From: Astropecten irregularis
Lineage: Eukaryota; Echinodermata; Asteroidea; Paxillosida; Astropectinidae
NCBI GenBank assembly: GCA_963971285.1
Contig: OZ020259.1
Coordinates: 6,882,001 to 6,946,000 of the forward strand
Reading direction: 5' to 3'
DNA: 64,000 nt
Made by a program: the position numbers and the translations under genes. Positions 4,471 to 40,246 of this stretch are shown one piece after another. Numbering within the stretch: the first letter of the stretch is position 1; every line of letters begins with the position of its first letter. Below the pieces are notes generated by a model that was not told the origin of the DNA, searched no databases, and saw nothing but the letters and a program-made list of their open reading frames with translations.

Positions 4471-4549
4471 TATTCAAATAAATTGTCAAAACCTTTTACA
4501 CACAAAGACATTTGATTAAGATATTAAGCCTACTTTAAATATACTTGGT

Positions 4550-17420: not shown

Positions 17421-17642
17421 CTAGAGGCTTGCAGTTATCGAAATATCAAAGGTTGATGTCTCACCACCGGTATTTGCTGGGCAGGACACGGATCGTGACA
17501 CCATGGCGATATCGTTCGGCTTGGCTTGCCGTGTGCGTCTCCATCGACTGAGAATGATGCAGCACACTTGACTCATATACGGTCCGATGAGTATACGAAC
17601 CTCATCACGCCAAACGCAAAGCAATATGAACACGATAAAACC
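17421..17642 (-). CDS. Gene B exon 29: TM7 and cytoplasmic tail
   Basis: Acceptor TCTTACAG, phase 0, stop TAG at 17421-17423. Encodes GFIVFILLCVWRDEVR, the adhesion-GPCR TM7/helix-8 signature after LLQ, then a tail with basic SRWRRTRQAK and a Ser/Thr-rich end. No PDZ-type C-terminus is evident. Confidence 0.93.
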   Translation of the reverse strand, partial: GFIVFILLCVWRDEVRILIGPYMSQVCCIILSRWRRTRQAKPNDIAMVSRSVSCPANTGGETSTFDISITASL

Positions 17643-20600
17643 CTGTAAGACAAAACGACAACATACAATCATTTGCCCTATATAAATACCAGGGGCCAAT
17701 TTCATAGAGCTGCTAAGCACCAAAATTGCTTAAGCACCAAAATCCTTAGTAAATGCAATCAGTATTCCAGCCAAAAGCCTTGTGAGCATAACATTGTGTA
17801 TGTTATGCTCAACAAACAAAGGTCGAATACAAGTCGAAAGCAGTAAACATCACATGGAAATTTGGTTGGTAATCCTGTTTGATCAAGGAAGACTTTTCAT
17901 GATGAAGTAATTTTTGTGCTTAAGCAGCTCTATGAAATTGATCTCAGCTTGAGAAAAACAGTTTCTGACTTTCCATTATAAATGTTCGCTTAGCAAGACA
18001 TTCAATCCAAATAGAAGAAAGCAATTAGAAATAGCAAAACCGTCATGGCTAGCTAGATACAGCCATACAATAACTAACTAATGGCAAACTAAAGAAGCCA
18101 AATACAGATTAAAATACTATTGACCCCATTAAGTAGCTCAAAAAATAACCAACAGTCAATCTTTTTGAAAATTATACTACAAGTAATAAACTGCTGCAAA
18201 CTGGGGCCAATTTCATAAAACTGTTAAGCACAACAATTTGCTAAGCATGACATTTCTGTCTTAATAAAAACAGGGTTAACAAACAAATTTCCACATGTTG
18301 TGTATCACTTGTGATTGTTCTTTGGCTGTTGTTCGCTGACCATGAATATCAAACGGAATTTCAAATGGTGGTTTGTTTTTTGGGGCGAGACATTCTTGTG
18401 CTAAGCAAATTTGTGTGCTTAAAAGTTTTATGAAATTGGCCCCTGTTCACCAACCCAACGTATTCTTGGTTCGTGCGCGCAGCATTGTGCATAAAATACG
18501 GGATGCGTCACCCGTCGCGTCACGCACAGTGCGCGCAGTTCACCGAGTAACATCAGGGTACGGAATTTTGACTCTACTGCGCCTGCGAAGTTACACCAGT
18601 AAAGATGGTGGCTGCATGCGCGTCCACACCGAAATGCTGACAACGCGCATATCTAGTTTTTTTTTAATTTAAATCTATAACTGGAACGTATTATTACCTG
18701 CAAGAGGTTGAAGAGATAGAAGACTAGCCGAAGGACAAACGTTGCACCAGTGATTGCCAGATATCCCAAACCCCAAGACAGTCCTAAGAGGGCGGAGATA
18801 CCGACAGCATTCTGGAGGCGTTTGGTGATCGTCCGAGAGCGGGATACCCTTTGGGGTTTGAGGAGATTTCGCAGGACTAAGACAGAGGTGACGAAGTTGT
18901 GGAGGACGGTAACACCAATGGGAGCAAAGAGACTAATGTACATCACCTTACCAAGCCGTAGGAAACAACTGCACACAAAAACCAAACATTTCTTATAGAT
19001 GTTAAAGAGAATCTTAAAGTTATAATACATGATTGATTGGTGAAAGTCACAAAACAACACTCCACTTTTGTCTAATCCAACAAATGAAATAATAATCCTG
19101 GGAAAATTTGAGCTCAAACGGACATGTGAGTCACGAGAAAAATAGCGAAGACCTGACTCAATGTTTTTATAAAACATAAAGAATGGTTTTGATCTTACCC
19201 CGAGATCAAAACTGTTTTCGGTCTTTGTTCGACTAATTTCGGGATAAATACACAATTTCAGGCGGAAATATTTGAACGATATGTTTCTACCACCACTATC
19301 TTCATATCCTGAAAGTTATTCGTAAATCTGTGAACATTTCTGTTAAGCTATGTTACAAAAGTATGATAGTACCTTTAGGTACAGGCTATTTGTTCGATCA
19401 CACGAAACTGCTCGACCAATAATATCAAACTGTTTAATACAATATCTCCACACTGTTCCACTTACCAAAACTTATTGTTGTAATGATCTGAAGCAACTGC
19501 GAATGTAGTCCCAAGAATTATGAGTGGAGAGCCTTTAGGATTCAATGAAATGTGAATGGACATCAAAAGTCGTCAGGTTTTGTGTGCACATTCAAACTTG
19601 AAGTAAATGATAATAGATAATAACCTTTAATTGAGATATTCAGATGTTCAGATGCTTGCGAGAGTGTTAGTGAGGATTGAAATATAATGCTGATTTGCAA
19701 ATTTTGCAACCGAACAGAGCTAGCGGACAGAATAGGATATGACATGGGGCCAATTTCACGGCGCTGCTTAGCACACAAATTTGCTTCGCACAAATATGTC
19801 TTGGCCGGTAAAATAAACCCATCATTGAACATTTCATTTGATATTCATGGTCAGTGAACAACAGCCAAGCGGTACACAGCACATGGACATTGGTTGTTAA
19901 TCCTGTTTTTTAAGACAGAAATGTTATATTTAGCAAATGTGCTAAGCAGCACCGTGAAATTGGCCCCAGCATTAAGCAGGATACAGCTCAGTAAACGTTA
20001 TAGACCGACTGTATTCCTAAGGTTCGAATCTCACGACTGTACGTTTTAGAATAATAAACATTCAGGGGTCGATTTCACGAAGCCCAACAATCGATCGTTA
20101 CTCGAGTTACGATCGATAACCCATCGTATCCTACGTAGGGCTCCAAGTCCTGCGATTGATAGAAGACCTAAGTTAGGAAGAGTTTGGTGAAATCGACCCC
20201 TGGACTGATTCCTTACCCCATGCAATGAGGCTAGCCTTCAGCATATAAAAGGATGAGTCCCCTCGACTCGTCATGCAGGAGTGGATGTTCCTGAATTCAA
20301 CTGCCAACCAAATCACGGTAGTCAGAGCCAAGTAGTGGAGTAAAGCAGCCACAGTCATACAACCAACTCCTGGCCCCTTCGGTGTTCAATTAACAAAACT
20401 GCATATCAATATCTTGCAGAAAAGGCTTCCGATATGACTGCACGGGAACAGTTTCAGATACATTTGTAATGACTTGGTAATTTGGTTGGTAATTACTAGC
20501 TCAATAATGAGGCTCTCGAGCTGCAACATGTACATAAATGCTGCCGCAGATGATCCCTACAGAATGGTACCAGTTTTGCCACACTTAGATGACACTTTCA

Positions 20601-23600
20601 TTCTCAAAATTCCAAGTCAACAATATAGCATGACTTGCAGCGCTAGAAAATAGCCGAGAGGTAGCATCAAAATAGCTGCACGGGAACCGTTGCAGATACA
20701 TTTTCATGCTACTGTTGACAATTATTACTCTCTCAATTATGAGACTATCGAATTGAAACCTGTACTTAAATGTAGTCACAGATGTTCCCTACAGAATGGT
20801 ACCAGTTTAGCCACATTTAACTGACATTTGTATTCTGAAAATTCCAAGTATAGCATGACTTACAACGCTAAAAACAGGAACAGGAACAGTTTCAGATACA
20901 TTTACATGCTACAGTTGGCAATTACTCTCTCAATAATGAGAATATCGAGTTGAAACCTGGCCTTAAATGTAGCTGCAGATGTTTCGTATAGAATGGTACC
21001 GGTTTTTCCAGACGTAGATTACATTTTGTATTCTCAAAATTCCAAGTATAGCAGACTTGCAGCACGAGGAAGCAGCCAAGCTGGTATCACACAGTCTCCA
21101 GGAGTCTCTGCATTCTCTAAATACGCGCACAACCAAACTACTCACCCTGATATGGTCGAATCCTGCACGAAATACGACGTGTAACATCATCAAGGACACA
21201 CAGAAGCTGACTAGAATCTGTCGTGATCTGCTAATCCATACCTTCCTGCAAGTGGGAGACAAGAGACCAATCCAGTAAGCCCTCCCATAAGATGCTCGGA
21301 GTAAGGAGGGCCTGATGACGTTTCGATCCTAGCAGAATCTTTTTCCAAGGCTTAAAGCTAGCAGGATCTTTCTCAAAGCCTAAAGACTTTAGCATTTTGA
21401 GACAGTTCCTTTTATGATCGAAACGCCAAGCTCTCCTAACTCGAGCATTTTATGAAACGCCTTTCCAAGAAGATCAAAGCGCTGTATATTAATATTATCC
21501 CCTGGTCATCGGGACATAATTTACATTCCTGAAACCATTTGAACTCTCTGCGAGAGGATACAGCCCTGGCTGCCGTATTCAGCGCACAGAGGCTAATCAA
21601 ACCACACAGCCATCTCCATACCACGCAGGTACCCATTTACGTCTGAGTGAAGAGGAGTAATATGTGACAAAGCGTCTTGCCAGAGGACGCAAGCACCACT
21701 TGCCTATGACTGGATTCGAACCCACAATCTGTAGATTGACCACAGGATCTTGAGTTCGACAATCCAGACCACTAGGCCACAGCACCCCACAATGATGGTT
21801 GCTTTAGGTAAAGAGAAGTATTCATTCGCTGTCTTACCTAATGCCAATGTATACAACTGTCGTTACAGCCAGGAATGTGATGGTGAGTAGACAGCCAACC
21901 TTGCTGATTTCAGTTTCCTTCTGATTACGGGGAGGAACAACTCTACCAGCTCCCTGGTCTCTGACATCCTTAACATAAAAACCAACGAAGACAAAGTAAT
22001 CAGTATGAGCAAATCATTTGGCTACAGAGGAATCAAAGAAGCCATCCTAATACGTACCACGAGGATGGCAAAGTTGGCTACGTGGCTGCAATTGCAAGCC
22101 ACTGTGGTAGCTGTCCGCTCTACAAGCTCACGTCCCATTATAGACCAGTCCCCGACCCCGTCATTCTGATCAAAGTCCCAGAAGACACACTGGATGCTGG
22201 TTCTATTTGCCTCAGTTTTCTTAATGGTCGGTACCTTTTAAAGAGATGGATGCAAACGAGGTAATGGTTTCAAGCAATCTGCTATAGGTAAACAACATTG
22301 TGTTAATCTACATATATCCTTGTACAAATTGAAGATACAGCTAGATATGAGAGCCTGGATCATGATCAGTGGCGTTAGATCCTACAACTAACTCACTAAC
22401 TAACTTACTGGAAAGCTTCATGCATTTTCTGCATTTGCTGCCTGAAAAAGGCAGCAAATGGACCGGTCTTGAGCTGCCACTTCTGCATTTTCAACTGACC
22501 ACCCAGTGTCTAGGAGTGAGAGTTTTATCTGAATGACATTTTGGGTGTTCTCTCATTGCCCGTGCTTTGCACTTGACCAAACTACTTAAGCCTACGTTTT
22601 CTTATGATGTTTGTCAGTTGAGGCTGCTTTGTCATTGATCTGATCTGTCTAGTTGGAATGTGTTGAGACCAGACAATCCTCAACATCTTCCTCTGACATC
22701 GCATATCGAAAGATCCTACGACAGGCACTCCAAAAATGTTCTTCTTTAGTATAACCATACCCTGAATGTAACAACCACCGGTTCCGTAAGATTGACCAAA
22801 TAAATCCCCTCCACTGTCAGTGACACCACAGATCCCGCGATCCGAAGACCCCGACCTTTCTCTTCATGAGATCTGATCGTCTCCGACTGGAACAAGGTGT
22901 CATCAGCATAGACGATGATACTGGCTCTCAACGGGGCACAGCAGCTGTCTAATAAGAAAGCATTTTCTCAAGTTACCACCGAGGACAATAATTATAGTAT
23001 CACATAATTGTCATACTTCGTGGGGTTCGGAGAGTGAGTATTCTATTTCGAGTCTCTAAGGTTGTTGACTATATGATAGCTTCCCACCTCCAATACGCAG
23101 TCTTTTACTTTTATATTGAACACTGAGGGATCTTTTGAGTTGCACTGATTGGGATGAAGGGTCCAGACAAGCAATGCTGCACTGCATGGGCCTCTTCTCC
23201 ACACTCATCCCATCTGGCCATGGCAACCTTTGATCGCCCTGTTCAAGTTCTAAGGTGGTTGAGTGCCTTCCACAGGACCCATGGTGCTTCTGAGCCCGGA
23301 AGGAGGGCTTCAGAAGTAACCAGCAAAAAGGAACGTAAGAAGAATTACATAAGAACACTAACCATTGTCAGTTGGAAGCAAGTCGATGATATTAGCTGGT
23401 AATCGAATGGATGCTACTACATTCTCAGGTATTTCACTGGCATTCGTGAAGATCTTGACATCAGTCCCAGCCAGATTGCCTTCTGCAGGTTGTTGGTTGG
23501 GTGACTGCTGTTGTACCAACACAAAGGTGACACCATTTTCAGCAAGCATCCAGTCAAGACTGACCGCCTCAACATGGATGGTGTCCTGACGTATGCTGAC

Positions 23601-26600
23601 CTGACCTTCCTGCTGGAGACTGAAGGTGATCTGAGCCTCTACGGATCGGATGATGGCCGAGAAGCTTGCACTACTACTAATGGAAACGTCTGGGTCCCTA
23701 ACAGTACTTGTGATGACATTGTTGACAGTTTCAATAACCAACTCTGTAACCTACAACGGAAAAGATAACATGTTATGCGGTCATGGGAACAATCAATGAG
23801 AATCTGTAGTTCTGTACCCTAATTCATATTTTCTAAGTATCAAATAGATGGTATGATCCCAGCGGTACATCAACAAGTGACCAGGACTGTCTGTGTGACC
23901 AAAATAGTAAGACTACTTCAATAGTGCTTCATTAGCAGATGATACTTTTCATCAATTGCATAAAGCTTTGGTTCACCTCTACTCCAATACCTGCAAGATA
24001 CTCAACATCCAAAGCATAAAGATAGATCCATCGATATAAATACACTCCCAGAATGTACCTCTTGTGTACTTTCAGAGGTTTCGGCACACTCCACATTCAA
24101 AAGAGATAAACATATGCTTCTTCTCATCATCTTTCCCAAAATAGATTCTTCAGGCTTTTGAGCTACAGTGCCTAGAATGCTTTTGAGGAATCCTTGATAT
24201 CATTACCAGAGATAGATAAGAAAGATGATTATTTATGACAATCAAGAATGAGAGTCATACCTTTATGTCTCCGATTCTGGTATTGACGATGTTCATCACG
24301 ACACCGGAAGCTACGCCAACATCTTCTCCATCAAATGACCTAGACGTGCGATTGGCTAGGAAGGCAGCAACCTCGAGGACATTTCCCTCAGTCACTTCGA
24401 TCTAGAAGCAAGAGCGCATTCACTGGTACAGAGGAATTCAACAACATCTTGGTAGGACCTCCCATGGCCCTGAGCCATCGCATTGACTCATTCGAGATGC
24501 TAGTCAAAAGTTGACATGGGTTCGTAAGATTGCCTCCTGCTGATGGCGGCCGTTAAGAGAACAACCGTCCAATCAATCACTGAATTTTTATCAGAAGACA
24601 AAACGTCGACTGACTGGACAATGACCAGTAACCATTGAAGATCTCTATACTATGCATTGAACATCTATAGGACGCCAATGATGCAATATCTTCGCAACTA
24701 AAAAAACTGTTTTTAAGGTGCCATCAAATAGTTGTGACATAACGTTAGAAGTTGGATCTTCTACAAATTTGAACGTTGACAGGCATGATGCCAGTCACGT
24801 TGTTAACATACACATTGCATTTACCTTTAAAACCTCGGCGAGAGACAACTTATCCCGATGTGAACCACAACTGTGAATGTCAATATGATCCTCCCACTGA
24901 ACAAAACCAGCATCCACGATTGAACAATTCCTGAAGGCGAAAGGTCGGCCAGCTGTAGGTATCAATTATTGATACAAAAGCGGTGTCAGTTTAGCCATTT
25001 TACCTTGATTGTGAACAAAAACAACATGAGCAAACAGCAATAGTGGAGCAATAGCAAATATGGAGTGCTGTTGCCTAGTGGTCTGGCGTTTCATACTCAA
25101 GAACTTGGGGTCAATTTACAGATTGTGGGCTTGAATCCAACCATGGGGTTTATAGTGGTGCTTGCATCCTTTGGCAAGACGCTTTGTCACATACTGCTCC
25201 TCTTCACCCAGGTGTAAATGGGTACCTGTGAGGGTAGAGATGGCTTTGTGCTTGATTAGTCTCCGTGCGTGCGCTTAAAGCAGCTGGGTTGTATACTCCC
25301 CAGGGAGTTGAGATGGTTTCAAGAATGTTAATGTAGCCCAGTGACCAGGGGACAATAATCTGCGCCTTTGAATGGTACTTAACAAGATTTTGTGCGCATT
25401 ACAAAATGATGTAACATCATTGTTATTATTATGAACAAAAACAACATCAGCAGCAGCAATAGAGGTACAAAGTACGAACCGTTTGTGGTCATCAGCGGGC
25501 ACCGCGCGATAGAAACCGCCGTCGACTCTTGGAGAGTCACTGGCCAGATTAGACCATCGGGACTCGTACCAGACGGGCAGAATCCTAAAAAGCAACAAAA
25601 TACACACTGTCATTTATTTCTGGTTAGAAAACCAAGCGATTCCCAAAAAGCACCCTAAGTGCTGTTGATCTAAATCCTGATGAAATCTACATTGGAAGAT
25701 GATGAGAAGGTACTTTTAGAGGTGGGAGGAACCCCCCCCCCCCCCCGAGTAATTCTCAGTAAAACCCCACGGAATCAGATAATCACTGGAAGCCCAATCC
25801 ACTTCATGACAGCCTGTACCTGGGCGTGGGCCACCAGAGAAGAAAAGAACCGCTATGCCAGCCGGAGTACCCTAATAATGTAAGGGGACTCAGGCACGCC
25901 TTGTACTGTGTCTTTAAAACAAGCAAAATAAGGACACAGATAAGCGAAATTTGCCAAACGTTTGTGCAATGTCCGCCCTTTAAAAAAAACAAATTCATGA
26001 ATGAGACGTCACAAGTCACCTTTGATGGTCACATAGAAGGAGCAACGTAATTCCAGGCCATGCATTGGGAACCACTGCTGGTAGCTAACTTTATGGGTTC
26101 CAATTTGTAACGTGGCCCTGGGATTGGTACTGGCGGTGAAATTTATTGGTCCATCCCAGCCGGTTAGAACCGGTTCCAGCCAATTCACACTGGTTCCAGT
26201 TGCGCCTGGACTGGCTGAGGCTGTCATGTTTGCTGGACAGACGATATCCACCACTACAACAACAACAAAGTTTAGTTTTAGATAATTACAAAAGTAAAAG
26301 GAAGCTTTCTCTATTCATAAAGATGGCATAACCAACTAAGGCTGGGTAAACAAAAGTTGGAGGAAATATGTCACACAAACCTGTTACTGTCACAATGAAA
26401 TCACAAGTATGTCCATTCCAAGAACCGTCCGTGGCATAGTACGTCACTTTAGAAACTCCTACTGAGAACGTCCCAGTACCATTTTGGACGCAGTTGCTAG
26501 TTGCAAAGCAACTAAATGTGACGTGATCAGGACCAGAGTTATCAGTGATGATCGGGGGGATCCAGCTGTGCGACGCCTGATTGGACGAGGAGGTGACAAG

Positions 26601-32600: not shown

Positions 32601-35600
32601 CCACCAGCAAGACGTACTGAGACTAGATAGATATAGTATGGCACCAGAAATTTCAAAAATAAAAAACAGAAAGTCCGAATTTTGGCTTCACAATGATTTG
32701 TGACAGAAAAGACGCTGTTTAGTCAACATGTTTTGAGGTCTTAAAACATCTGAAAAACGTTTTACTTGATGCTTAATTTGCAAGTATTAAATACAGACCA
32801 TTCCCGAAAGATGTGCGCCTCCAAGAGTTTGTAAAGCAATGGCCAATCACAATGCGCATCTGGAAAAGGGTCGACCGATTCCGCGCATTGTGATTGGCCA
32901 AGGTGTTGCAAACTTTTGTTGCGCACAATATGGAATCGCCGGTATTGTCTCGCAGTGGACCCTTCCGGCCTGTAAATCATACTGTACGCATTGACCAATG
33001 GGGGACTTTTGAGAACCGATCTTTAAGTCAACAGCGCACGCGCACGCACAACAGCGCAGGCGCAAAACAACGTGCGCATGCTCATAATTGCGTGCGCGTG
33101 GGCTGTTGACTTGAAGACCGGTTCTCGAAAGTCTCCCATTGGAAGACGCATTTTCATCAGGTTACCACGAAAGCCTCAGTCAAACTCGGTCACTGTCTGT
33201 ATGTAAACACACATGTGGGAAGGGCTTAAAAGCAAAGTCGGAACAGTCCATTAATGTGGGTATTAATCAGGGGGGACTCACCGGGTGGAGGTGGGGTGAT
33301 ATCACAGACTACACTAACATCCGCGTGGTGGTTACTGTTATGATGGAACCAGCCCAAGTGGTCGCACTGAACGATGCTGGATTCATTGCCCTTACATCCA
33401 CTTATCTCCAGGAGAACTATCCCTGATTTCCGTCCGAAGTTGGCATTGCTCCACGTCTGGAAGGCTGACGGATAACCAAGCTGCCTACAGATCACGTTGG
33501 CTTCTCTGATCTTCCAGCTGTTGACTTGACTACCACAGACTGTGCCCCAGACCCCCTTATAATTCACCTGTACTGTCCCTTCGTTCGGAGTGCTTCCATC
33601 AATAAGACGAACTGCAACTGGATTTTGGAAGCAACAACGTCGAAATCCAAAATTGGCAAGCGGTAAATACATATAAAAGTCCAAGTGAAGCGAGCTGTGA
33701 TAATATGATATTGAATTATTCATCAGCATGTAGCTGTTTTCTACTTTTGTCCCATTCTCCTGACCACACTTGCCCATCTCTATCCTCTCGTTGTGGTTTC
33801 CCAGCCTTATTGTATGCTTTCCGTTTCCCTGGTCACCCCCCCCCCGTTTGTTCTGATCATCTCATCCATTTATATGTATCTTAACTTGCATGTTCCTGTC
33901 CTTGTCATTTAGCCTTTAAGAAGATCCTGCTAGGATCGAAACGTCAGATCCTCCTGACTTTGAACACTTTCTAACTTTGTTATAGAGGTTGGTAAGACAT
34001 GAAGCGAGATGTGTTTCTTTTGCAGTTTCTAATCAATCGTTTCAGTCAACTCACCTCCAGTAAAAGGGTTTGAAGTGGAGCAAGTGACTCCAGCATCCGA
34101 ATAGTGTAGACATTCGTGATTGAACCATCCACTGTGTTCACACTGGGCGATATTTGGTTCATCTCCTGTGCACCCAAGTGTGCTCAGAAGGACCGGTCCT
34201 GATCCGAGGCCAAAGTGACCGCTTGTCCAAGCTTGAGATGCAAAGGGGTAGCCCAGCTGTCGACAGATGACGTTAGCGTCCCGAATGTCCCAGTCCTTAT
34301 CGCAGACTGTTCCCCAGTGACAATGGTAGTTTATCTCTACCGTTCCTTCATTGGAGTTGTTTGCACCTACAAGACGGACTTCAGCTACATGCAAACAAGA
34401 AACGAAAAAAGAGCACAACTTTAAGAAGAAGTACAACAGTGCATAATATAATTAAAAACATTAGGCTGATTTGATTGAGGTAGTCATTCCATGCCAATCC
34501 TGAGCTTAACTCACCGTAAAGGACAGGTTCAGCATTACATGTCACCCCGACATCTCTGTCATGACTACAGAAAGGGGTGATGATATCGCTGTATTCACAA
34601 TCTTCAACGCTCGATTCGCTTCCGTTACATTTAACCGATTCCAGAAGACTCGGTCCCAACCCAGGTCCGAAGTGAGCCCAGGTCCAGGCCTGGGATACCG
34701 AGGGGTAGCCCAGCTGTCTACAGATGACGTTAGCATCTTCAATGCTCCAGCCATCATCACAAACCGTACCCCATTGGCCTTTGTAGTAGACCTCCACTCT
34801 ACCTTCATTCGGAGTGTTGCCGTCAACAAGTCTCACTGAAACTAATTAAAAGAAATGTGATGCTATCTAACCTATTTTTGAAAAGTTTATTTTCAAAGCT
34901 ATATGATTCAATTAATCGATTTGTGAAGCCCATGTCGACCATTTGTATGAAAAACTAACCAATTGCATTGGATACGCCGATACATGTGACTCCTACGTCT
35001 TGATGGTGCTTACAGCCCTTTCCAAACCAACCCGCATGGTCACATTGGTCGATGCTAGACTCGTCTCCTTTACAAGTGACAGTGTGCATGAGGACCGGTC
35101 CTGACCCCGAGCCAAAGTGAGCTCTGACCCAAAAATGGGATGCAGAGGGGTACCCAAGCTGTCTGCAGACGACGTCTGCATCCTCAATTCTCCAGTCGTA
35201 ATCACAAACTGTTCCCCAAGTGCAGTTGTAAAATACTTCCACTCGGCCTTCGTTGGGACTATTTCCATCAGACAGTCTCACTGCAACTTGAGGGCGAAAT
35301 TCAATGCAAAAAAATCAACCAAACAGTTAATTTCATTCCGTTCTGCTCGGATCCGTTCGGTCTTGTTCTTTTCCGTTTGGTTCAGTGCACCTTGTGTCGG
35401 TTCGTTGCAGCTCAGTTCTGTTATGTTCGGTTCTGTTATGTTCGGGTCTGTTCTGATCCGTTTGGTTTCGTTCCGTTCAGTACCATTTAGTTCGGTTCGG
35501 TTCTTTTTGGTTCTTTTCTGTACTGTTCGGTTCGGTTCGTTTCGTTTCGATTCGGCTCGGCTCTGTTCGGTTGTTTTGTTCAGCTCAGTTTGGTTCGTTT

Positions 35601-38600
35601 TTATTCGGTTTGGCTCGTCTAAGTTTTGTGTTCGGTTCGTTTAGGTTCGGTTCGGATCTGTCTTGTTTCGTTCCGTTCAGTTATGTTTAGTACGTTTCGG
35701 TTCTGTTTGGTTCTGTTCGGTTCCGTTTAATTCAGTTCTGTTTGGTTCTGTTCGCTTCAGTTCTGTTCTGTTCGGTTCGGTTCGTTTCGATTCGGCTTGG
35801 CTCTGTTCGGTTCAGTTCCGTTCGGTTCGGTTTGGCTCGGCTCGGTTTTGTGTTGTTCTGTTCTATTGTGTTGTATTCGGCCCAGTTTGGTTCTGTTTGG
35901 TTCATGTGACTCGGTTCCATTCGGTTCCATTCGGTTCTATTCGGTTCGGAACGGCTACGTGAGATTCAACTCGATAAGTTTTTTATTATCAGTACGTGTG
36001 ACTTTGTAGTGTCATTCAAACCAACAAAAGATTGAACCAATGGAACACACAGGAGTCCAAACAAAAGAGGTACAATAGGGGTCCAAGATTGCGGGCGTTT
36101 GAATGTACTTGAACATGTGTATGTGTCTTTTAATAGGTGTGAATGAAGTACACGATGTACGATTGTAATAATAATTATTATTATTACTTAGGCATTTATA
36201 TAGCCTTCTTACACACAAGAAGGGTATCAGAACGCTTTACACTATATTATCCCTGGTTATCGGGCCCATTTACATTCCTAAAACAATCTCAGCTCCCTGG
36301 GGAGTATACAGCTCGCAGAAACTTGCGAAGCGCGCAGGGCTTATCAAACACACAAAGCCATCTCTACCCTCACAGGTTCTCATTTTACACCTTAGTGAAG
36401 AGGAGCAATATGTGACGAAGCGTCTTGCCCAAGGACGCAAGCATCACTAACCCATGACTGGATTCGAACCCACGATCTGTAGATTGACTACAAGATCTTC
36501 AGTACGACATGCCAGACCACTAGGCCACAGCACCCCACACTAATTATTAGACCCACTTACCGGTACCAGCTGGTGGGTATGCGTCACATGAAACTCCGAC
36601 TTCGTATCGATTTGTGCAGCCTGACCCAAACCAACCTGTGTGTTGGCACTCTTCAATGCTGGATTCTTCCCCGTTACATGTAACTTGGTTCAGCACAATC
36701 GGTCCGGGGCCTTGCCTAAAGTGACTCCCTTCCCAGGCATAGGATGCTGAAGGGTAACCAAGCTGTCTACAGACGACGTTGGCATCTTTAATGCTCCAGT
36801 TATGGCTACAAATTGTTCCCCAGACGCAGGAGTAGAACACTTCAACCCTTCCCTCGTTTGGGTAGTTGCCATCAGATAAACGCACTGTAATATGACAAGG
36901 AATTTGACGCTATTGTATTCACTGTACTTAAAAAGACCAAGCAGTATATCTCCCAGCGTGAAGCCATCCATTACAATAATTCGATTGATATAAAATTGTA
37001 CCTGATGGAGAATGTGTAATATCATGTTCTTCACCACACGTCACTGCAGCATCATTGTCTTCACATCGTTTTTGTAACCATCCACTCTCACTACCAGGAC
37101 ATTGGTCGATGCTTGATTCATTACCGGTGCAGGCAACACTGCCCAGGAGAATCAGCCTTGGTTCTTGACTATCATGAGCACTGATCCAGGCCTGGGATGC
37201 TGCAGGGTAGCCCAGCTGTCGACAGATGACGTTAGCATCTTCAATGCTCCAGCCATCACCACATACTGTACCCCATTCTCCTCCATAGAACACCTCAACT
37301 CTACCTTTGTACGGATTTTCCTCATACGCGAGGCGTACTGGGAAATATAAAATTAATCACTCAACATAGCGTCCTCTAATAAGTACAAAATAGCTCTACA
37401 ACACAAAATTTATGGGTCATTAGACCAGGTTGGGGAACGATTTCTGACGATGTCCCTGATTATACGTCAGTGAACATATCCACTACTTGATGTAGCACAG
37501 TCTAACTTCTGATTTGCACTTGATAATGGAGATCATTATGTTAAGCTTGGTTCATAAATTTGGCATGGCCACAGGGCTGAACGGATAGACAATGTTATAC
37601 CAGTCAAACAGTAAGTGTAGTTAATTCGGGTGAGGCCCTTGAACTGTGATGACCTTTCGTGGGGTCCTGTGGTCAGTTTCATAGAGCTGCTTAAGCACAA
37701 AACTTCCTTAAACATGGAAAGTCTTCCTTAATCAAACAAGATAACCAACCAAATGTTCATGTGATGTTCATTGCTTTGGACTTGTATTCGACCACCTTAA
37801 GCATGGAAAGTCTTCCTTGATCGAACAGGATTAGCAACCAAATGTTCACGTGATGTTTACTGCTTTTGACATGTATTCGGCCATTGTTTTCTGAGCATAA
37901 CATTCACAAGGAGTTTTGGCAAACTGATTTTATTTACCAAGGTTTTTGGTGCTTAAGCAAACTTTGGTGCTTAAGCAGCTCAATGAAATTGGCCCCTGTC
38001 CCGCATTGCTGTCCCATATTACATTATTTAAGGCGATCTGATTTTGATAACACTGACCTTGCAATATGTTTCCCTCCTCACAAGTGACTCCAGCATCTTC
38101 GTAATGGCCACAATCGTGATATAACCACCCGCTGTGATCGCACTCCTCAATACTGGATTCATCGCCGTCACAGTTGACATTGTCCACGATTATTGGTCCT
38201 GATCCATGGCCAAAGTAAGCGTGGGTCCAGGCCTGTGATGCCGCAGGGTAGCCCAGCTGTCGACAGATGACGTTGGCATCTTCGATGCCCCAGCCATCAT
38301 CACAGACTGTACCCCAGGCGCATTTGACAAAAAGCTCCACTCGGCCTTCATTTGGGGCACTACCACCAGCAAGACGAGCTACACTCGGGAATATTATAAA
38401 TAAATATATATAGATATATAATCAACTGGTTTGAGGGTTGAGAGCGGATTCTAGCTCCGATGTGATGGAAGTTGACAAACTACGCCGAGGGAACTAGTTT
38501 GTCAACTTCCAACACAGAGGGAAGGTAGAATCGACTGTCCACCCGAAATAACCATCATGCGATATTTGTTTTACTATACGTCATAAATATTCTTTATTGT

Positions 38601-40246
38601 CCACTATTTCACCGAGAAGTGCAGAAGTTCACGCACGCGCACTGCAAACTTAGATAGATGCGCAGTGAGATTTTCCATGCGGAGTGAGATGTTACACGTG
38701 TAACAGTTCCTTACTTTCTAACAATCGTAGGAATTTTGATGCACTGAATTGGCCCTACGTGGAATAGCCTCATAGGCCCCCTACCACGGGTCATCCTTCG
38801 TAACTCGAGTAACGATCGATCGCAGGGCTTCGTGAAGTTGACCCCAGTGGTGCGTTCCGCTTGCGCGAACATGTTCGCTACGTTTGCGTTACGCTTGGAT
38901 TTGGAAGTGGAACCCACTCGCAACAATCTTTTCATCTTTCCATTTTTTGCGTCCATCTTTCATTCAGTGCAGTTAGCCAACTTCAGCAAATACCTCCTCT
39001 ACAATCATACGCCGTTAGCTATGAACGTGGCGCGCGTGTTTGGCAAACAGCGCGTTCCGGTTTGAAAACGGTGGTGCACATTGTGCGCCGTGTGCGTAGT
39101 TAGCTGGAGTGGAACGCACCCAAGGTTTGGGATGACGGCTTACCCGGTGTGCGTAAGGTGACATCCAAAGCACAAGTCACTCCAACGTCATAGTAATGTC
39201 GACAGGCGTGACTGAACCATCCACTGTGATCACACTGATCCAGGCTGGTCTCGTCCCCATTGCATGCCACACGGCTGGTAAGGATTGGTCCTTGACCTTC
39301 ACCGAAGTGAGCTCCACCCCAGGCATGGGATGCAGAAGGGTAGCCCAGCTGACGACAGATGACTATGGCATCTTTAAGAGTCCAGTCATCCCTCCCGCAT
39401 ATTGTTCCCCAGATCCCACTGTAGTACACTTCCACTGTCCCTTCATGAGGGACTTTTCCATTCACTAAGCGCACTTCTACAGCGTCTTCAGAAAAACACA
39501 GAAAAACATCACAGAATAAGCATAAATAGAAATCTTAGAAATAATTTGATACAAGTAATAATTTACTGCAAACTTACTGCGCATCACATAATGACTTGAA
39601 CTATATAAAAAGGTTCGAGTAAAGAGGGCCTAACATTTCGACCCTAAGAGAACCTTTAAATTGGCAAAGACTAACTCACAACAGTACAATAAAAGACGTG
39701 CAAGTAAAGATATACGTAAATGTATACTGGCGACAAAGCTTTTTCCACGGCTGGTCCTAGGGAGTGGAACAATATAAGGGACACCACATTTTTCTCAGTT
39801 TTCAAGAAACTTCTCAAAACTTTCCTCCTTTCACTGTCTCCTTAGTCCTGCATGGCTGCTCTCTGTTTCTGTTCACTTGTTTTCTTTCCTGTACAGCGCT
39901 TTGATCTTGCTAAAGGCGCTACATAAATGACCTTTATTATTATCATTAAATGGATGCGAGGATTAGAACGAAGGGAAGAGTGACTATAGGGAAACAGGGA
40001 AAGCGTGCGATGGGGCGGGCTGGGAAACCACAAAGAGAAACCATAACGTTTTGGTGAGGTAACATTACGTTATTTGCAAAGAAAGGCTTTGAAATAATGC
40101 TCCACCTCAAACACTGAAATGAGATCAACATTACCTGTAGTTGATGCTTGCTCCAAGATGGTTACGATCAATCGTATCAGGATGATGGACAGCCACAGAC
40201 GGTGATGGCAGTTTCCTCTGTCGTACATTTTCAGCTTCGGATTCAT
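17421..40246 (-). CDS. Gene B: SRCR(14)-HYR(3)-HRM-GAIN-GPS-7TM adhesion GPCR, complete
   Basis: Twenty-nine minus-strand exons (listed separately) join to 7575 coding bases and 2524 residues, with compatible phase at every junction. Order by residue: signal peptide 1-37, SRCR 1-14 about 38-1580, HYR 1-3 about 1581-1837, HRM-like 1838-1905, GAIN 1905-2208 with GPS 2165-2208, 7TM 2225-2475, then a 50-residue tail. SRCR domains bind polyanions and microbial surfaces in known receptors. The 7TM carries adhesion-family hallmarks: the TM3 motif AALLHYLALTTVIWLAVE, the TM6 motif GLSWGLGYLA and the TM7 motif NLLQGFIVF. It is predicted to be a plasma-membrane receptor coupling an SRCR ectodomain to G proteins. 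Odd points are the GPS residue HVA, missing or extra SRCR cysteines and two domains in one exon. Joining of the 5' SRCR block (36.5-40.2 kb) to the rest rests on phase and spacing, not on a transcript. It could be an adjacent gene, but no other start or stop is seen. Confidence 0.85.
17692..17943. repeat. MITE family M1, intron 28 of gene B
   Basis: GGGGCCAATTTCATAGAGCTGC and GCAGCTCTATGAAATTGA ends are inverted copies, with ATAACATTGTGTATGTTAT in the middle. Confidence 0.88.
18203..18443. repeat. MITE family M1, intron 28 of gene B
   Basis: GGGGCCAATTTCATAAAACTG at the left and AGTTTTATGAAATTGGCCCC at the right; 241 bp. Its interior (GTTGTTCGCTGACCATGAATATC) differs from the 17.7 kb copy, so two subfamilies exist. 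Confidence 0.9.
18698..18968 (-). CDS. Gene B exon 28: ECL2 end, TM5, TM6 and start of TM7
   Basis: Acceptor TTGTGTGCAG, phase 2 in and 0 out. Contains VMYISLFAPIGVTVLHNF (TM5), the third intracellular loop with basic residues, GISALLGLSWGLGYLAI (TM6 hallmark) and FYLFNLLQ (start of TM7). The CC pair at the entry supplies the ECL2 cysteine. Confidence 0.95.
19180..19377. repeat. MITE family M3, truncated copy
   Basis: The right half only: the CGGTCTTTGTTCGACTAATTTC block to the GTATGATAGTACCTTTAG end. Confidence 0.7.
19466..19532 (-). CDS. Gene B exon 27: TM4 and ECL2
   Basis: A 67-base exon, phase 1 in and 2 out (TCCTAAAG acceptor, TTTTG/GTAAGTGG donor). Reads GSPLIILGTTFAVASDHY then NNKFC, which completes the TM4 motif with the preceding WG. 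It was found by phase and motif rather than length, so it is slightly less certain than its neighbours. Confidence 0.85.
19746..19967. repeat. MITE family M1, intron 26 of gene B
   Basis: GGGGCCAATTTCACGGCGCTGC left and GCAGCACCGTGAAATTGGCCCC right; the ends differ from other copies in step (CACGG/CCGTG). Confidence 0.9.
20065..20201. repeat. MITE family M2, next to exon 26 of gene B
   Basis: GGGGTCGATTTCACGAAGCCC at the left and GTTTGGTGAAATCGACCCC at the right. It ends 16 bases from the exon 26 donor. Confidence 0.88.
20217..20376 (-). CDS. Gene B exon 26: TM3 and second intracellular loop
   Basis: 160 bases, phase 0 in and 1 out. Encodes GCMTVAALLHYLALTTVIWL, the TM3 signature with its disulfide cysteine, and ends KASLIAWG where TM4 begins. 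The acceptor (ACACCGAAG) has a weak pyrimidine tract; the boundary was chosen for phase. Confidence 0.9.
21146..21245 (-). CDS. Gene B exon 25: TM2
   Basis: 100 bases, acceptor CCACTTGCAG, phase 2 in and 0 out. Encodes KVWISRSRQILVSFCVSL then MMLHVVFRAGFDHIR. Confidence 0.85.
21295..21440. repeat. Dispersed repeat M11, inverted pair
   Basis: Contains AGGAGGGCCTGATGACGTTTCGATCC at the left and GATCGAAACGCCAAGCTCTCC at the right, so the unit is itself a loose inverted repeat. Confidence 0.7.
21450..21790 (-). repeat. tRNA-derived SINE (family 1), minus
   Basis: The head lies at the right: on the minus strand TGGCCTAGTGGTCTGG, then GGGTTCGAATCCAGTC. The tail end is near GCGCTTTGATC. It sits in the TM1-TM2 intron of gene B. 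Confidence 0.88.
21838..21968 (-). CDS. Gene B exon 24: post-GPS linker and TM1
   Basis: 131 bases, phase 0 in and 2 out. A polar linker (DVRDQGAGRVVPPRNQ) about 20 residues long is followed by SKVGCLLTITFLAVTTVVYI, the first membrane helix. Confidence 0.9.
22058..22219 (-). CDS. Gene B exon 23: GPS motif
   Basis: 162 bases, phase 0 to 0. Reads TSIQCVFWDFDQN, GVGDWSIMG, VACNCSHVANFAILV. This is the GPCR proteolysis site at the end of the GAIN domain. Known self-cleaving GPS motifs have His-Leu-Thr or His-Leu-Ser; here it is His-Val-Ala, so the nucleophile is missing. The cysteine normally following 'W..xG' is also absent (GRELV), while the first and the CxC cysteines remain. Confidence 0.93.
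22761..22948 (-). CDS. Gene B exon 22: GAIN domain, beta-rich part
   Basis: 188 bases, phase 1 in and 0 out. Ends with GSVVSLTVEG and NLTEPVVVTFR, the strand pattern that precedes GPS in GAIN domains. The adjacent cysteines DSCC are unusual. Confidence 0.9.
23363..23750 (-). CDS. Gene B exon 21: GAIN domain, central part
   Basis: 388 bases, phase 0 in and 1 out (acceptor CCGTTGTAG, donor CAATG/GTTAGT). Includes VTELVIETVNNVI, VSLDWMLAENGVTFVL and ENVVASIRLPANII, as in GAIN subdomains A and B. Confidence 0.92.
24100..24215. repeat. Fragment of a SINE-like repeat (family 3)
   Basis: TTTTGAGCTACAGTGCCTAGAATG and GGAATCCTTGATATCATTA match, with substitutions, the 3' part of the element at 63655-63905. 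Confidence 0.6.
24261..24401 (-). CDS. Gene B exon 20: GAIN domain, N-terminal helices
   Basis: 141 bases, phase 0 to 0. Encodes IEVTEGNVLEVAAFLANRTS and DVGVASGVVMNIVNTRI, the helical start of a GAIN domain. Confidence 0.88.
24825..24952 (-). CDS. Gene B exon 19: HRM-like module, second half
   Basis: 128 bases, phase 1 in and 0 out. Reads GRPFAFRNCS, VQWEDHIDIHSC and then LSLAEVLK. The FRNC..W..C spacing is that of the hormone-receptor-like domain found before GAIN in adhesion GPCRs. Confidence 0.85.
25063..25425 (+). repeat. tRNA-derived SINE (family 1), plus
   Basis: TTGCCTAGTGGTCTGGCG and GGGCTTGAATCCAACC boxes, then the GGCAAGACGCTTTGTCACATAC body and a TTATTATTATG tail. Splits the two HRM exons of gene B. 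Confidence 0.85.
25480..25584 (-). CDS. Gene B exon 18: HRM-like module, first half
   Basis: 105 bases, phase 1 to 1. Encodes FCPSGTSPDGLIWPVT and ARCPLMTTNG, with the WP.T and CP landmarks of an HRM domain. The donor G/GTTCGT is weaker than most but keeps the frame. Confidence 0.8.
26020..26253 (-). CDS. Gene B exon 17: HYR domain 3
   Basis: 234 bases, phase 1 to 1. Reads VVDIVCPANMTA, VNWLEPVLTGWDG and CSFYVTIKG. Hyalin repeats adopt an immunoglobulin-like fold used in adhesion. This copy is short (78 residues) and lacks the usual D..PP start. Confidence 0.85.
26381..26647 (-). CDS. Gene B exon 16: HYR domain 2
   Basis: 267 bases, phase 1 to 1. Starts DTEPPTFTGCPDDVIV, has the SHSWIPPIITDNSGP core and ends CDFIVTVTG. 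Two extra cysteines (FSCFATSNC) lie in the middle. Confidence 0.92.
26695..26940. repeat. MITE family M2: a full copy next to a half copy
   Basis: A full element from 26791 (GGGGTCGATTTCACCAAACTC) to 26940 (GAAATCGACCCC) is preceded by a decayed partial copy from 26695 in the opposite sense. Confidence 0.85.
26969..27238 (-). CDS. Gene B exon 15: HYR domain 1
   Basis: 270 bases, phase 1 to 1. Starts DNVPPIITCPASQVIPT and ends YTAVDGSGNKETCDMFITV, the clearest hyalin repeat of the three. Confidence 0.95.
27566..27858 (+). repeat. tRNA-like sequence split by a hAT-type MITE
   Basis: TAGCTCAGTTGGTAGAGC (A box) and, after the insertion, GGTTCAAATTCC (B box) make a tRNA-related head. The anticodon arm does not form a normal seven-base loop and the acceptor arms do not pair, so it is more likely a tRNA-derived repeat than a functional tRNA gene. 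Confidence 0.6.
27612..27820. mobile_element. hAT-type MITE with 8-bp target duplication
   Basis: Ends CAGTGGCGTCGCCA and TGGTGACGCCACTG are inverted copies. The identical octamer TTCAGGAG flanks both sides (27604-27611 and 27821-27828). The 209-bp interior is C-rich and non-coding. Confidence 0.92.
27904..28242 (-). CDS. Gene B exon 14: SRCR domain 14
   Basis: 339 bases, phase 1 to 1. VSVRLVNGNNPHEGRVEV, LCIWGTVC, VVCRQLGYPSAV, DQCEHVG. Seven cysteines, with the extra one before WGT. Confidence 0.93.
28345..28510. repeat. Dispersed repeat M11
   Basis: ACATAAGTAATAAACTGCTGCAAACTGC, then GGTGGGCCTGACGATTCGATCC and an inverted GAAACCTCAGGCCCTCC end. Confidence 0.7.
28596..28930 (+). pseudogene. 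Fragment of a non-LTR retrotransposon reverse transcriptase
   Basis: The plus-strand frame reads TECWTMKPTLEKAVDGCYTR and, after a deletion, ARRMRLARHCQRDTKS. These are typical of the C-terminal part of LINE reverse transcriptases (W.L...LE...DG.YTR, then RR.R.AGHC). It is frameshifted and lies in an intron of gene B on the opposite strand. Confidence 0.7.
29022..29687 (-). CDS. Gene B exon 13: SRCR domains 12 and 13 in one exon
   Basis: 666 bases, phase 1 to 1, twice the usual exon length. The first domain reads LIRLVDGNATNEGRVEV with DCVWGTVC; after a DGHPSSA linker the second reads VVRLVDGSYAHEGRVEV with QDQWGTVC. All other SRCR domains of the gene have their own exon, so an intron has been lost here or a domain duplicated inside the exon. 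Confidence 0.95.
29808..29862. repeat. Dispersed repeat M11, short copy
   Basis: GTTAGGAGGACCTGACGTTTC then AATCCTACCATGATC and CTCAAAGGC, as at 21295. Confidence 0.65.
30471..30794 (-). CDS. Gene B exon 12: SRCR domain 11, altered disulfides
   Basis: 324 bases, phase 1 to 1. Reads VRLAAGSSEYAGRVEV, ECFWGSVSSNGWS, VVCRQLGYPSAY, GQCEYKK and DAGVTC. The WGTVC cysteine is Ser and the later W..xC cysteine is absent, so the C2-C7 bond of group A domains is lost; a Cys before WGS remains. Confidence 0.93.
30825..31695. other. Intron 11 of gene B with small palindromes
   Basis: No exon seen. GACCATTGAT and ATCAATGGTC face each other at 31030-31056. A perfect 15-base inverted repeat around a single A is at 31643-31673. 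Confidence 0.6.
31696..32031 (-). CDS. Gene B exon 11: SRCR domain 10
   Basis: 336 bases, phase 1 to 1. VPVRLVDGSTPYLGRVEV, WGTVCDDGWSIEDA, ICRQLGYPAAS and VACG; six cysteines. Confidence 0.93.
32269..32616 (-). CDS. Gene B exon 10: SRCR domain 9, altered disulfides
   Basis: 348 bases, phase 1 to 1. Reads VSVRLAGGDGPFEGRVEL, RCTWGTINGLV, VICRQLGYPSAS, EQCNHSGWLQYMHRG and VGVSC. As in domain 11 both the WGT-C cysteine and the C7 position are missing, while the extra Cys before WGT is kept. Confidence 0.93.
32811..32935. repeat. Palindromic repeat (GGCCAATCACAATGCGC / GCGCATTGTGATTGGCC)
   Basis: Two copies of GCCAATCACAATGCGC face each other around GGTCGACCGATTCC. Related pieces lie at 27415-27495 and 54520-54632. 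Confidence 0.75.
32995..33142. mobile_element. MITE family M4 (CCAATGGGGGACTTTTGAGAACCG)
   Basis: Left CAATGGGGGACTTTTGAGAA and right TTCTCGAAAGTCTCCCATTG are inverted, both followed inward by AAGTCAACAGC. The GC-rich centre is made of GCGCACGC repeats. A second copy is at 60808-60953. Confidence 0.88.
33282..33611 (-). CDS. Gene B exon 9: SRCR domain 8, five cysteines
   Basis: 330 bases, phase 1 to 1. VRLIDGSTPNEGTVQV, WGTVCGSQVNSW, VICRQLGYPSAF and VVCD. The C7 position is Ser (HHNSNHH), leaving the WGTVC cysteine unpaired. Confidence 0.93.
33790..33965. repeat. Dispersed repeat M11, long form
   Basis: Shares TGTATCTTAACTTGCATGTTC and GATCCTGCTAGGATCGAAACG with 57380-57495; carries a poly-C run near 33835. 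Confidence 0.7.
34055..34384 (-). CDS. Gene B exon 8: SRCR domain 7
   Basis: 330 bases, phase 1 to 1 with acceptor TGTAG; an alternative acceptor 6 bases on (CTGAAG) would also keep frame. EVRLVGANNSNEGTVEI, HCHWGTVCDKDW, VICRQLGYPFAS, seven cysteines. Confidence 0.88.
34515..34835 (-). CDS. Gene B exon 7: SRCR domain 6
   Basis: 321 bases, phase 1 to 1, acceptor TTTCAG. VRLVDGNTPNEGRVEV, WGTVCDDGWSIEDA, VICRQLGYPSVS and GVTCN; six cysteines in regular group A spacing. Confidence 0.93.
34960..35280 (-). CDS. Gene B exon 6: SRCR domain 5
   Basis: 321 bases, phase 1 to 1. VRLSDGNSPNEGRVEV, NCTWGTVCDYDW, VVCRQLGYPSAS and GVTC; seven cysteines. Similar to domain 4. It is the first exon on the gene B side of the duplicated block. 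Confidence 0.93.
35295..35965. repeat. Degenerate GGTTC/GTTCG-rich tract, very poor in A on the plus strand
   Basis: About 670 bases built of GGTTCGGTTCTGTTCGGTT-like units. Long frames read as FGSVRF repeats or the complement and are compositional only. Intron 5 of gene B. Confidence 0.93.
36186..36540 (-). repeat. tRNA-derived SINE (family 1), minus; orthologous to the copy at 5556
   Basis: Minus-strand head GTGGCCTAGTGGTCTGG and GGGTTCGAATCCAGTC; tail at TATATAAATGCC. It lies the same distance from the SRCR exon as in gene A and marks the left limit of the duplicated segment. Confidence 0.9.
36561..36884 (-). CDS. Gene B exon 5: SRCR domain 4
   Basis: 324 bases, phase 1 to 1. VRLSDGNYPNEGRVEV, SCVWGTICSHNW, VVCRQLGYPSAS and GVSC; seven cysteines. 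Closest homologue is 5883-6206. Confidence 0.93.
37002..37337 (-). CDS. Gene B exon 4: SRCR domain 3
   Basis: 336 bases, phase 1 to 1. WGTVCGDGWSIEDA, VICRQLGYPAAS, DQCPGSESGW and AAVTC; six cysteines. Confidence 0.93.
37670..37996. repeat. MITE family M1 with an internal duplication
   Basis: TTTCATAGAGCTGCTTAAGCAC at the left and GCAGCTCAATGAAATTGGCCCC at the right. The block CATGGAAAGTCTTCCTT..AACCAAATGTTC occurs twice, which makes it about 80 bp longer than other copies. Confidence 0.85.
38058..38378 (-). CDS. Gene B exon 3: SRCR domain 2
   Basis: 321 bases, phase 1 to 1. ELFVKCAWGTVCDDGW, VICRQLGYPAAS, EECDHSGWLYHDC; seven cysteines. Twin of 9300-9620. Confidence 0.93.
38433..38550. repeat. 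Small inverted-repeat element, twin of 9668-9778
   Basis: GGGTTGAGAGCGGATTCTAGC to TAGAATCGACTGTCCACCC with the AACTAGTTTGTCAACTTCCAACAC middle. Confidence 0.7.
38711..38845. repeat. MITE family M2, left end lost
   Basis: AACAATCGTAGGAATTTTGATGC through GGGCTTCGTGAAGTTGACCCC. Same intron as 11027-11185. Confidence 0.75.
39144..39476 (-). CDS. Gene B exon 2: SRCR domain 1
   Basis: 333 bases, phase 1 to 1, acceptor GCTGTAG and donor CACCGG/GTAAG. EVRLVNGKVPHEGTVEV, WGTICGRDDW, VICRQLGYPSAS and GVTC; six cysteines. Confidence 0.93.
39727..39945 (+). mobile_element. 3' end of a non-LTR retrotransposon (insertion specific to this copy)
   Basis: The frame FSTAGPREWNNIRD..FKKLLKTFL is the usual C-terminus of L2/CR1-like reverse transcriptases, followed by TACAGCGCTTTGATC..GGCGCTACATAAATGA and a TTATTATTAT end. 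TAAATGTAT before it and TAAATGGAT after it look like the target duplication. Gene A lacks it. Confidence 0.8.
40135..40246 (-). CDS. Gene B exon 1: signal-peptide exon
   Basis: ATG at 40246 with an in-frame TAG 12 bases upstream, so this is the first usable start. 112 bases ending in phase 1. MNPKLKMYDRGNCHHR, hydrophobic LWLSIILIRLIVTIL, EQASTT. Confidence 0.88.

What the first reader, a model, noticed from the sequence alone, without database searches (positions are those of the whole stretch)
17421..40246. A complete adhesion GPCR with 14 SRCR domains, 3 HYR domains and an HRM module
Directly seen: 29 exons that keep phase throughout and end in a stop, with SRCR exons upstream of a GAIN/GPS/7TM module. 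Known: SRCR arrays normally occur in secreted or single-pass scavenger receptors; adhesion GPCRs carry many extracellular domain types, but I know of no well-described one with a long SRCR array. Inference: a receptor that joins scavenger-type ligand recognition to G-protein signalling, perhaps in immunity or self/non-self recognition.
Basis: partly seen in the sequence, partly recalled or inferred. Interest (0 to 1): 0.95.

Follow-up and report, generated by a model that had tools for sequence, protein, structure and literature searches.

The report
Scavenger-domain adhesion GPCR gene, tandemly duplicated
This stretch encodes what looks like one very long cell-surface receptor that joins an array of scavenger-receptor (SRCR) domains to a G-protein-coupled seven-helix signalling unit; receptors of this kind are already recorded in other animals, but this version is long, adds hyalin-type domains, probably does not cut itself, and sits beside a duplicate.

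Summary
Observation confirmed. A 29-exon minus-strand model (40246 to 17421; 2534 aa; all 28 introns GT-AG; one terminal stop) encodes a signal-like start, 14 SRCR, 3 HYR, an HRM-like module, GAIN/GPS and 7TM; closest solved GPS-7TM relatives are ADGRG2 and ADGRG6. HRM is weak (below-cut-off GPR128_N match). One transcript is inferred, not shown.

New here: (1) exon 1 and SRCR1-4 recur downstream (12495-5883) as a tandem copy; dN/dS 0.31 over those exons. (2) A/B replacements concentrate in one SRCR loop (15/40 versus 39/393 sites; scan permutation 7/5000). (3) The GPS reads CNCSH-V-A, lacking the Thr/Ser nucleophile, so probably not self-cleaved. (4) Acidic cation site 2 is complete in only 2 of 14 SRCRs.

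An immune role is plausible but untested. New variant of a known kind.

The parts
40135..40246 (-). Exon 1: start codon and signal-peptide-like segment (LSIILIRLIVTIL)
   Evidence: recurs in tandem copy B at 12390-12495 with a 6-base in-frame difference
39144..39485 (-). SRCR1 exon, phase 1-1
38058..38378 (-). SRCR2 exon, phase 1-1; keeps complete acidic cation site 2
37002..37337 (-). SRCR3 exon, phase 1-1 (a nearer phase-1 donor at 37035 is also possible)
36561..36884 (-). SRCR4 exon, phase 1-1
34960..35280 (-). SRCR5 exon, phase 1-1
34515..34835 (-). SRCR6 exon, phase 1-1
34055..34384 (-). SRCR7 exon, phase 1-1
33282..33617 (-). SRCR8 exon, phase 1-1; C7 lost, C2 kept
32269..32616 (-). SRCR9 exon, phase 1-1; C2 and C7 both lost
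31696..32031 (-). SRCR10 exon, phase 1-1
30471..30794 (-). SRCR11 exon, phase 1-1; C2 and C7 both lost
29022..29687 (-). SRCR12 and SRCR13 in one exon, phase 1-1; SRCR12 keeps acidic cation site 2
27904..28242 (-). SRCR14 exon, phase 1-1
26969..27238 (-). HYR1 exon, phase 1-1
   Evidence: 22.5 bits, cut-off 21.7
26381..26647 (-). HYR2 exon, phase 1-1
   Evidence: 47.1 bits
26020..26253 (-). HYR3 exon, phase 1-1
   Evidence: 31.7 bits
25480..25584 (-). HRM-like module, first exon, phase 1-1
   Evidence: only a sub-threshold GPR128_N match for the module
24825..24952 (-). HRM-like module, second exon, phase 1 to 0
24261..24401 (-). GAIN domain, exon 1 (helical part; by pattern only)
   Evidence: no Pfam GAIN hit
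23363..23750 (-). GAIN domain, exon 2
   Evidence: PDB alignment to ADGRG2 covers its C-terminal part
22761..22948 (-). GAIN domain, exon 3
   Evidence: aligned to ADGRG2
22058..22234 (-). GPS exon; C-N-C-S-H-V-A-N-F, Ala at the nucleophile position and Arg aligned with the second GPS Cys of ADGRG2
21838..21968 (-). TM1 exon with post-GPS (tethered-agonist) segment, ends phase 2
21146..21245 (-). TM2 exon, phase 2 to 0
20217..20376 (-). TM3 exon (weak acceptor score)
   Evidence: 7tm_2 21.4 bits alone
19466..19532 (-). TM4 exon
18698..18968 (-). ECL2, TM5, TM6 and start of TM7
   Evidence: 7tm_2 24.4 bits alone
17421..17642 (-). TM7 end, C-tail and stop
5883..12495 (-). Tandem copy B: exon 1 (12390-12495) and SRCR1-4 (about 11207-11551, 9300-9620, 6312-6647, 5883-6206); later exons of B not found in the window

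Best explanation
One gene encodes a huge adhesion GPCR: signal peptide, 14 SRCR, 3 HYR, HRM-like module, GAIN/GPS, 7TM. Shown by sequence: open exon chain, domain matches, a C-terminal seven-helix region, a tandem duplicate of the first exons under purifying selection, and one fast-changing SRCR loop. Inferred: the SRCR array (about 1550 residues) binds polyanionic or protein ligands, with Ca2+/Mg2+ bridging by SRCR2 and SRCR12, which keep the acidic cluster; the other domains act as spacers or bind by other surfaces. Binding or pulling on the array strains an uncleaved GAIN/GPS (Ala replaces the catalytic Thr/Ser), and the segment after the GPS (ANFAILVDVR) acts as an undissociated tethered agonist on the 7TM bundle, giving G-protein signalling in a sensing cell. 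Tandem duplication plus change in the loop AW..xHFGxGxG would tune ligand choice. Architecture about 0.85, mechanism about 0.5; the figure given as confidence blends them.
For: Exon model with all GT-AG introns and one terminal stop; SRCR, HYR, GPS and 7tm_2 matches; GPS-7TM matches ADGRG2 at 7.7e-35 and ADGRG6 at 4.6e-28, first and third of 18 listed sequences, with TM3 HY, ECL2 Cys, TM6 GxSWG and TM7 NxLQG aligned to their counterparts in ADGRG2; hydropathy; copy B in the same order, 79-86% identical in the five longest DNA blocks, dN/dS 0.31 (bootstrap 0.23-0.46); loop hotspot 15/40 vs 39/393, 7 of 5000 permutations after scanning; loss of C2 together with C7 in SRCR9 and SRCR11; cation-site chemistry from PMC7043408 passages.
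Against: No RNA. The SRCR14-HYR1 join rests on phase and the lack of a signal-peptide exon candidate in that 665-base intron. One candidate lies in the HRM intron (25094-25004); all introns give 3 in 15.2 kb. AATAAA and ATTAAA occur in the 665-base intron. The purifying-selection evidence covers exon 1 and SRCR1-4 only, not HYR-7TM. Only 2 of 14 SRCRs keep cation site 2 (a third, SRCR10, if its gap is placed otherwise), weakening a classic scavenger mechanism for the whole array. SRCR8 lost C7 but kept C2. Non-cleavage, tethered agonism, G-protein choice and any immune role are untested. dN about equals dS in the loop (0.243/0.247), which fits relaxed constraint as well as positive selection.
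Confidence: 0.72

Rival explanations
1. Two neighbouring genes: a secreted 14-SRCR protein ending after SRCR14, and a separate HYR-HRM-GPS-7TM adhesion GPCR starting downstream.
For: SRCR-only genes are common: 53.66% of 1747 SRCR genes in 29 species, and 15 of 16 in one sea urchin cluster (PMC10855680); AATAAA at 27417 and ATTAAA at 27276 lie in the intervening intron; a signal-peptide candidate lies at 25094.
Against: The 665-base gap is an ordinary intron for this gene (range 89-1280, median 527) and holds 0 signal-peptide first-exon candidates by a crude test; SRCR14 ends and HYR1 begins in phase 1.
Confidence: 0.13
2. One gene with alternative ends: a full-length GPCR and a secreted SRCR form made by read-through past the SRCR14 donor.
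For: Read-through of the SRCR14 donor meets a stop ending at 27830 and AATAAA follows at 27417.
Against: Two such hexamers in 666 bases are roughly what chance gives (my estimate, no shuffle run); nothing else points to it.
Confidence: 0.15
3. An ordinary uncleaved adhesion GPCR for cell-cell or matrix adhesion, in which SRCR and HYR domains are adhesive modules and immunity plays no part.
For: HYR is an adhesion-type fold (recalled); most SRCRs lack the complete cation cluster; purifying selection overall in the compared exons.
Against: Tandem duplication with a replacement hotspot in one loop is more typical of recognition receptors (the comparison is general knowledge).
Confidence: 0.35

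Closest known systems
Amphimedon queenslandica adhesion GPCRs Aq712029 and Aq715659 (PMC4302439; passages read)
   Same: Adhesion-family 7TM with multiple SRCR repeats in the N-terminus
   Different: Sponge; the word HYR does not occur in that main text; array length and GPS state of these two are not given in the passages
Branchiostoma floridae adhesion GPCR with SRCR (PMC2246102; passages read, abstract included)
   Same: SRCR in an adhesion GPCR N-terminus, in a deuterostome
   Different: No 14-fold array mentioned in the passages; the word HYR does not occur in that main text
Acanthaster planci SRCR genes with 7tm_2 (PMC10855680 Table 1)
   Same: 7tm_2 is one of the top five domains found in this starfish's SRCR proteins
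   Different: Only a table entry; 7tm occurs once and HYR, GPS and GPCR not at all in the main text
Human ADGRG2 and ADGRG6 (group VIII adhesion GPCRs)
   Same: Best PDB matches for GPS-7TM; the HRM-like module weakly matches the GPR128/ADGRG7 N-terminus
   Different: No SRCR or HYR (recalled)
CD163 / DMBT1 (SRCR scavenger receptors)
   Same: CD163 is the best PDB match for SRCR12-13, DMBT1 further down the list; in CD163 too Ca2+ is reported at only some domains
   Different: Single-pass or secreted, no GAIN/7TM (recalled)
Placozoan C-type-lectin adhesion GPCRs (PMC6321704; passages read)
   Same: Scavenger-type recognition domain joined to an adhesion/secretin-family GPCR
   Different: C-type lectin domains, not SRCR

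Membership tests
Adhesion GPCR (class B2) | 7TM domain of the secretin/adhesion type (7tm_2) | tested here: met
   84.3 bits, cut-off 20.6, E 1.1e-23; ADGRG2 best PDB match
Adhesion GPCR (class B2) | GPS motif next to TM1 | tested here: met
   GPS 43.0 and 45.6 bits, cut-off 22.5
Adhesion GPCR (class B2) | GAIN domain | tested here: inconclusive
   Its C-terminal part aligns to ADGRG2; no Pfam GAIN hit, helical part by pattern only
Adhesion GPCR (class B2) | Autoproteolysis at H-L-S/T (typical, not universal; recalled) | tested here: not met
   Sequence reads H-V-A; catalytic Ser/Thr absent. Cleavage itself not assayed
Adhesion GPCR (class B2) | Long N-terminus with several domain types on one transcript | tested here: inconclusive
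   Exon model stays open through all joins; no RNA
SRCR superfamily | SRCR fold with conserved cysteines | tested here: met
   14 domains by HMM; 11 of 14 keep all six of C2, C3, C5, C6, C7, C8
SRCR superfamily | Cation-binding acidic cluster | tested here: inconclusive
   Site-2 acids complete in SRCR2 (D, D, E) and SRCR12 (D, D, D), 2 of 14 (reference domain typed from recall)
HYR proteins | HYR domain | tested here: met
   3 of 3 exons above the gathering score
Hormone-receptor (HRM) module | Match to Pfam HRM (PF02793, number recalled) or a solved HormR domain | tested here: not met
   No HRM hit; GPR128_N below cut-off; no PDB match to E 10
Immune pattern-recognition receptor | Microbial ligand binding, immune expression | not testable with these tools
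   No expression or binding data

The most novel reading that the evidence does not exclude
A tandemly duplicating family of uncleaved SRCR-HYR adhesion GPCRs in which a fast-changing loop on successive SRCR domains supplies recognition variety, wiring scavenger-type recognition straight to G-protein signalling as a germline-diversified immune or allorecognition receptor.
Probability: 0.25. Interest if true: 0.78.

Novelty: new variant of a known kind. Interest (0 to 1): 0.5.

Why it matters
Invertebrate SRCR expansions are usually read as immune, yet how binding becomes a signal is mostly unknown (general knowledge). A receptor that puts 14 SRCR domains on a GPCR gives a direct, testable route (cAMP, Ca2+ or arrestin read-outs). 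The predicted loss of the GPS nucleophile makes it a natural case for signalling by an undissociated tethered agonist, and the tandem copy allows a test of whether one SRCR loop sets ligand choice.

Tried and rejected
A first ab initio exon search recovered most core domain exons but chained them into 76 exons, many tiny and spurious, so I fixed boundaries by hand from domain limits, splice scores and phase. I first began TM1 at 21920; comparison with ADGRG2 showed the post-GPS segment too short, and acceptor 21968 repairs this. A reading of exon 1 in another frame was rejected, since that frame meets a stop in copy B (sequence) while the ATG frame is kept with a 6-base in-frame difference. 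TM2 was hard to find because much of the TM1-TM3 interval is repeats. The idea that the SRCR exons at 5.8-11.6 kb belong to this receptor was rejected: they are a collinear second copy with its own exon 1. The same architecture could not be sought in other animal genomes: no genome is held for the window, the genome collections on hand are prokaryotic by their descriptions, and one viral-contig scan with the TM5-6 exon found no relative. I did not use Rfam, PADLOC, PHROGs or NCBIfam. Literature: 10 of 10 searches used; 'adhesion gpcr + srcr + hyr' and 'hyr domain + gpcr + srcr' each gave 0 papers, which says only that the held open library has none with those words. Passages read that added nothing on SRCR joined to a GPCR: PMC6208332, PMC11797021, PMC8242945, PMC5082814, PMC12909245.

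Full report
WHAT IS THERE. The gene runs on the minus strand. All 28 introns are GT-AG and the only stop is the last codon. Twelve SRCR exons carry one domain each and one exon carries two, all in phase 1-1, as are the three HYR exons. The protein is 2534 aa, or 2518 if TM1 starts at the nearer acceptor. Fourteen SRCR domains are found by an HMM built from five of the window's domains and by Pfam as 7+7 (on the 2518-aa version). HYR (3 of 3 exons), GPS and 7tm_2 pass Pfam cut-offs. Of the six TM exons taken alone, TM3 and TM5-6 pass; TM1, TM2, TM4 and TM7 give no hit, so those four rest on the joined alignment. Hydropathy windows above 1.6 occur only at residue 17 and at 2239-2463, in groups that fit seven helices, the last two partly merged.

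WEAK POINTS. The HRM label has only a below-cut-off match to GPR128_N (24.2 bits, cut-off 27.2) and no PDB match up to E 10. The HYR stretch has no PDB match up to E 0.1. The helical half of GAIN has no Pfam GAIN hit. The TM3 acceptor scores -1.3 and the TM4 acceptor 2.5 on a generic matrix written from general knowledge, not trained on this species. There is no RNA.

ONE GENE OR TWO. The critical join is SRCR14 to HYR1, a 665-base intron; the gene's introns span 89-1280 bases, median 527. A crude search for an ATG exon with a hydrophobic start ending in phase 1 at a donor finds none there and 3 in all 15.2 kb of introns; one of these 3 lies in the HRM intron (25094-25004). Phase agreement alone is weak evidence. 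I put about 0.85 on a single gene.

A TANDEM COPY. The SRCR exons at 5.8-11.6 kb are not extra domains of this receptor. Exon 1 and SRCR1-4 recur in the same order and strand at 12495-5883. The five longest DNA blocks, which include sequence upstream of exon 1 and introns, are 79-86% identical; seven non-coding pieces aligned separately are 72-89% identical, the SRCR3-4 intron being lowest. Over 468 aligned codons dS is 0.209, dN 0.065 and dN/dS 0.31 (bootstrap 0.23-0.46). By exon, dN/dS is 0.16, 0.24, 0.66 and 0.40 for SRCR1-4; exon 1 has 4 replacements and no silent change. In the SRCR4 comparison I began B four codons inside its start, so 103 of 107 codons were counted. No SRCR5 or later exon of B was found by HMM or tblastn in the window, whose low end holds 129-130-base repeat arrays. 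This comparison says nothing about the HYR-7TM part.

A VARIABLE LOOP. Replacements between A and B concentrate in ten residues after the AW of each of SRCR1-4: 15 of 40 against 39 of 393 elsewhere (Fisher 1.6e-5). I had seen this by eye, so I repeated it as a scan with the same width: the best ten-column window reaches 15, and 7 of 5000 shuffles within domains reach that. In the loop dN 0.243 about equals dS 0.247; elsewhere 0.051 against 0.227. This may be positive selection or relaxed constraint.

LIGAND AND SIGNAL CHEMISTRY. PMC7043408 (passages) gives the cation-site residues of DMBT1 SRCR8 and reports that changing either of two of them abolished binding. On that numbering, site-2 acids are complete in SRCR2 (D, D, E) and SRCR12 (D, D, D), 2 of 14; SRCR10 has D, D and an E one column off next to a gap; SRCR13 has D and E but lacks the first D. 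CD163 likewise shows Ca2+ at only some domains (PMC12273918 passages). SRCR9 and SRCR11 have each lost both C2 and C7, SRCR8 only C7; that these two form one disulfide is recalled. The GPS reads C-N-C-S-H-V-A-N-F, so Ala stands where Thr/Ser acts in self-cleaving receptors (recalled), and Arg aligns with the second GPS Cys of ADGRG2. The 7TM aligns TM3 HY, ECL2 Cys, TM6 GxSWG and TM7 NxLQG with ADGRG2. I infer an uncleaved receptor that can signal through its post-GPS segment.

PRIOR ART. Amphioxus adhesion GPCRs include SRCR, named as new in 2008 (PMC2246102, passages with abstract). Two sponge adhesion GPCRs have multiple SRCR repeats (PMC4302439, passages). A 2024 survey of 29 species lists 7tm_2 among the top five domains of SRCR proteins in Acanthaster planci, and reports one SRCR per exon and 70.47% tandem arrangement in sea urchin (PMC10855680; abstract, first of two parts of the results, discussion, legends and table). 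Placozoans have C-type-lectin adhesion-type GPCRs (PMC6321704 passages). The kind is therefore known. A 14-SRCR plus 3-HYR receptor did not turn up in the searches and 56 of an open-licence library, nor in the passages I read; supplements were not open to me.

VERDICT. Observation confirmed, novelty reduced, function plausible but untested. New variant of a known kind; interest 0.5.

Noticed in passing
window 43534-43878 (+): A single SRCR domain on the opposite strand (Pfam 95.9 bits), 36-48% identical to the array's domains, with complete acidic cation site 2: apparently another SRCR gene, facing away.
   Followed up: partly
window 48672-48881 and 54947-55096 (+): A short stretch with a weak MFS-transporter match (21.4 bits, cut-off 33.4) and a second hydrophobic stretch without a Pfam hit: perhaps parts of one multi-exon transporter gene.
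   Followed up: no
window 59883-60257 and 60443-60595 (+): Two stretches with glutamine-amidotransferase matches, one above a Pfam cut-off (27.5 bits, cut-off 25) and one just below; the first holds MCGIWALFG, as in asparagine synthetase (enzyme name recalled).
   Followed up: no
window 21449-21787, 36216-36539, 5598-5828 (-); 10192-10525, 25061-25357, 43185-43491 (+): A dispersed repeat of about 230-340 bases, copies 76-85% identical to that at 21449-21787; three of these six copies hold GGTTCGAATCC, like a tRNA B box, so perhaps a tRNA-derived SINE; ARAGORN finds no tRNA.
   Followed up: partly
window 20438-21061: About three diverged tandem copies of a 200-base unit (about 74% identical) in the TM2-TM3 intron.
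   Followed up: no
window 1-4993: Arrays of a 129-130-base tandem repeat where the rest of copy B would be expected.
   Followed up: no
window 35415-35947: A 530-base degenerate GTTCG/GTTCT low-complexity array inside the SRCR4-SRCR5 intron, with open frames on both strands that look like by-products of the repeat.
   Followed up: no
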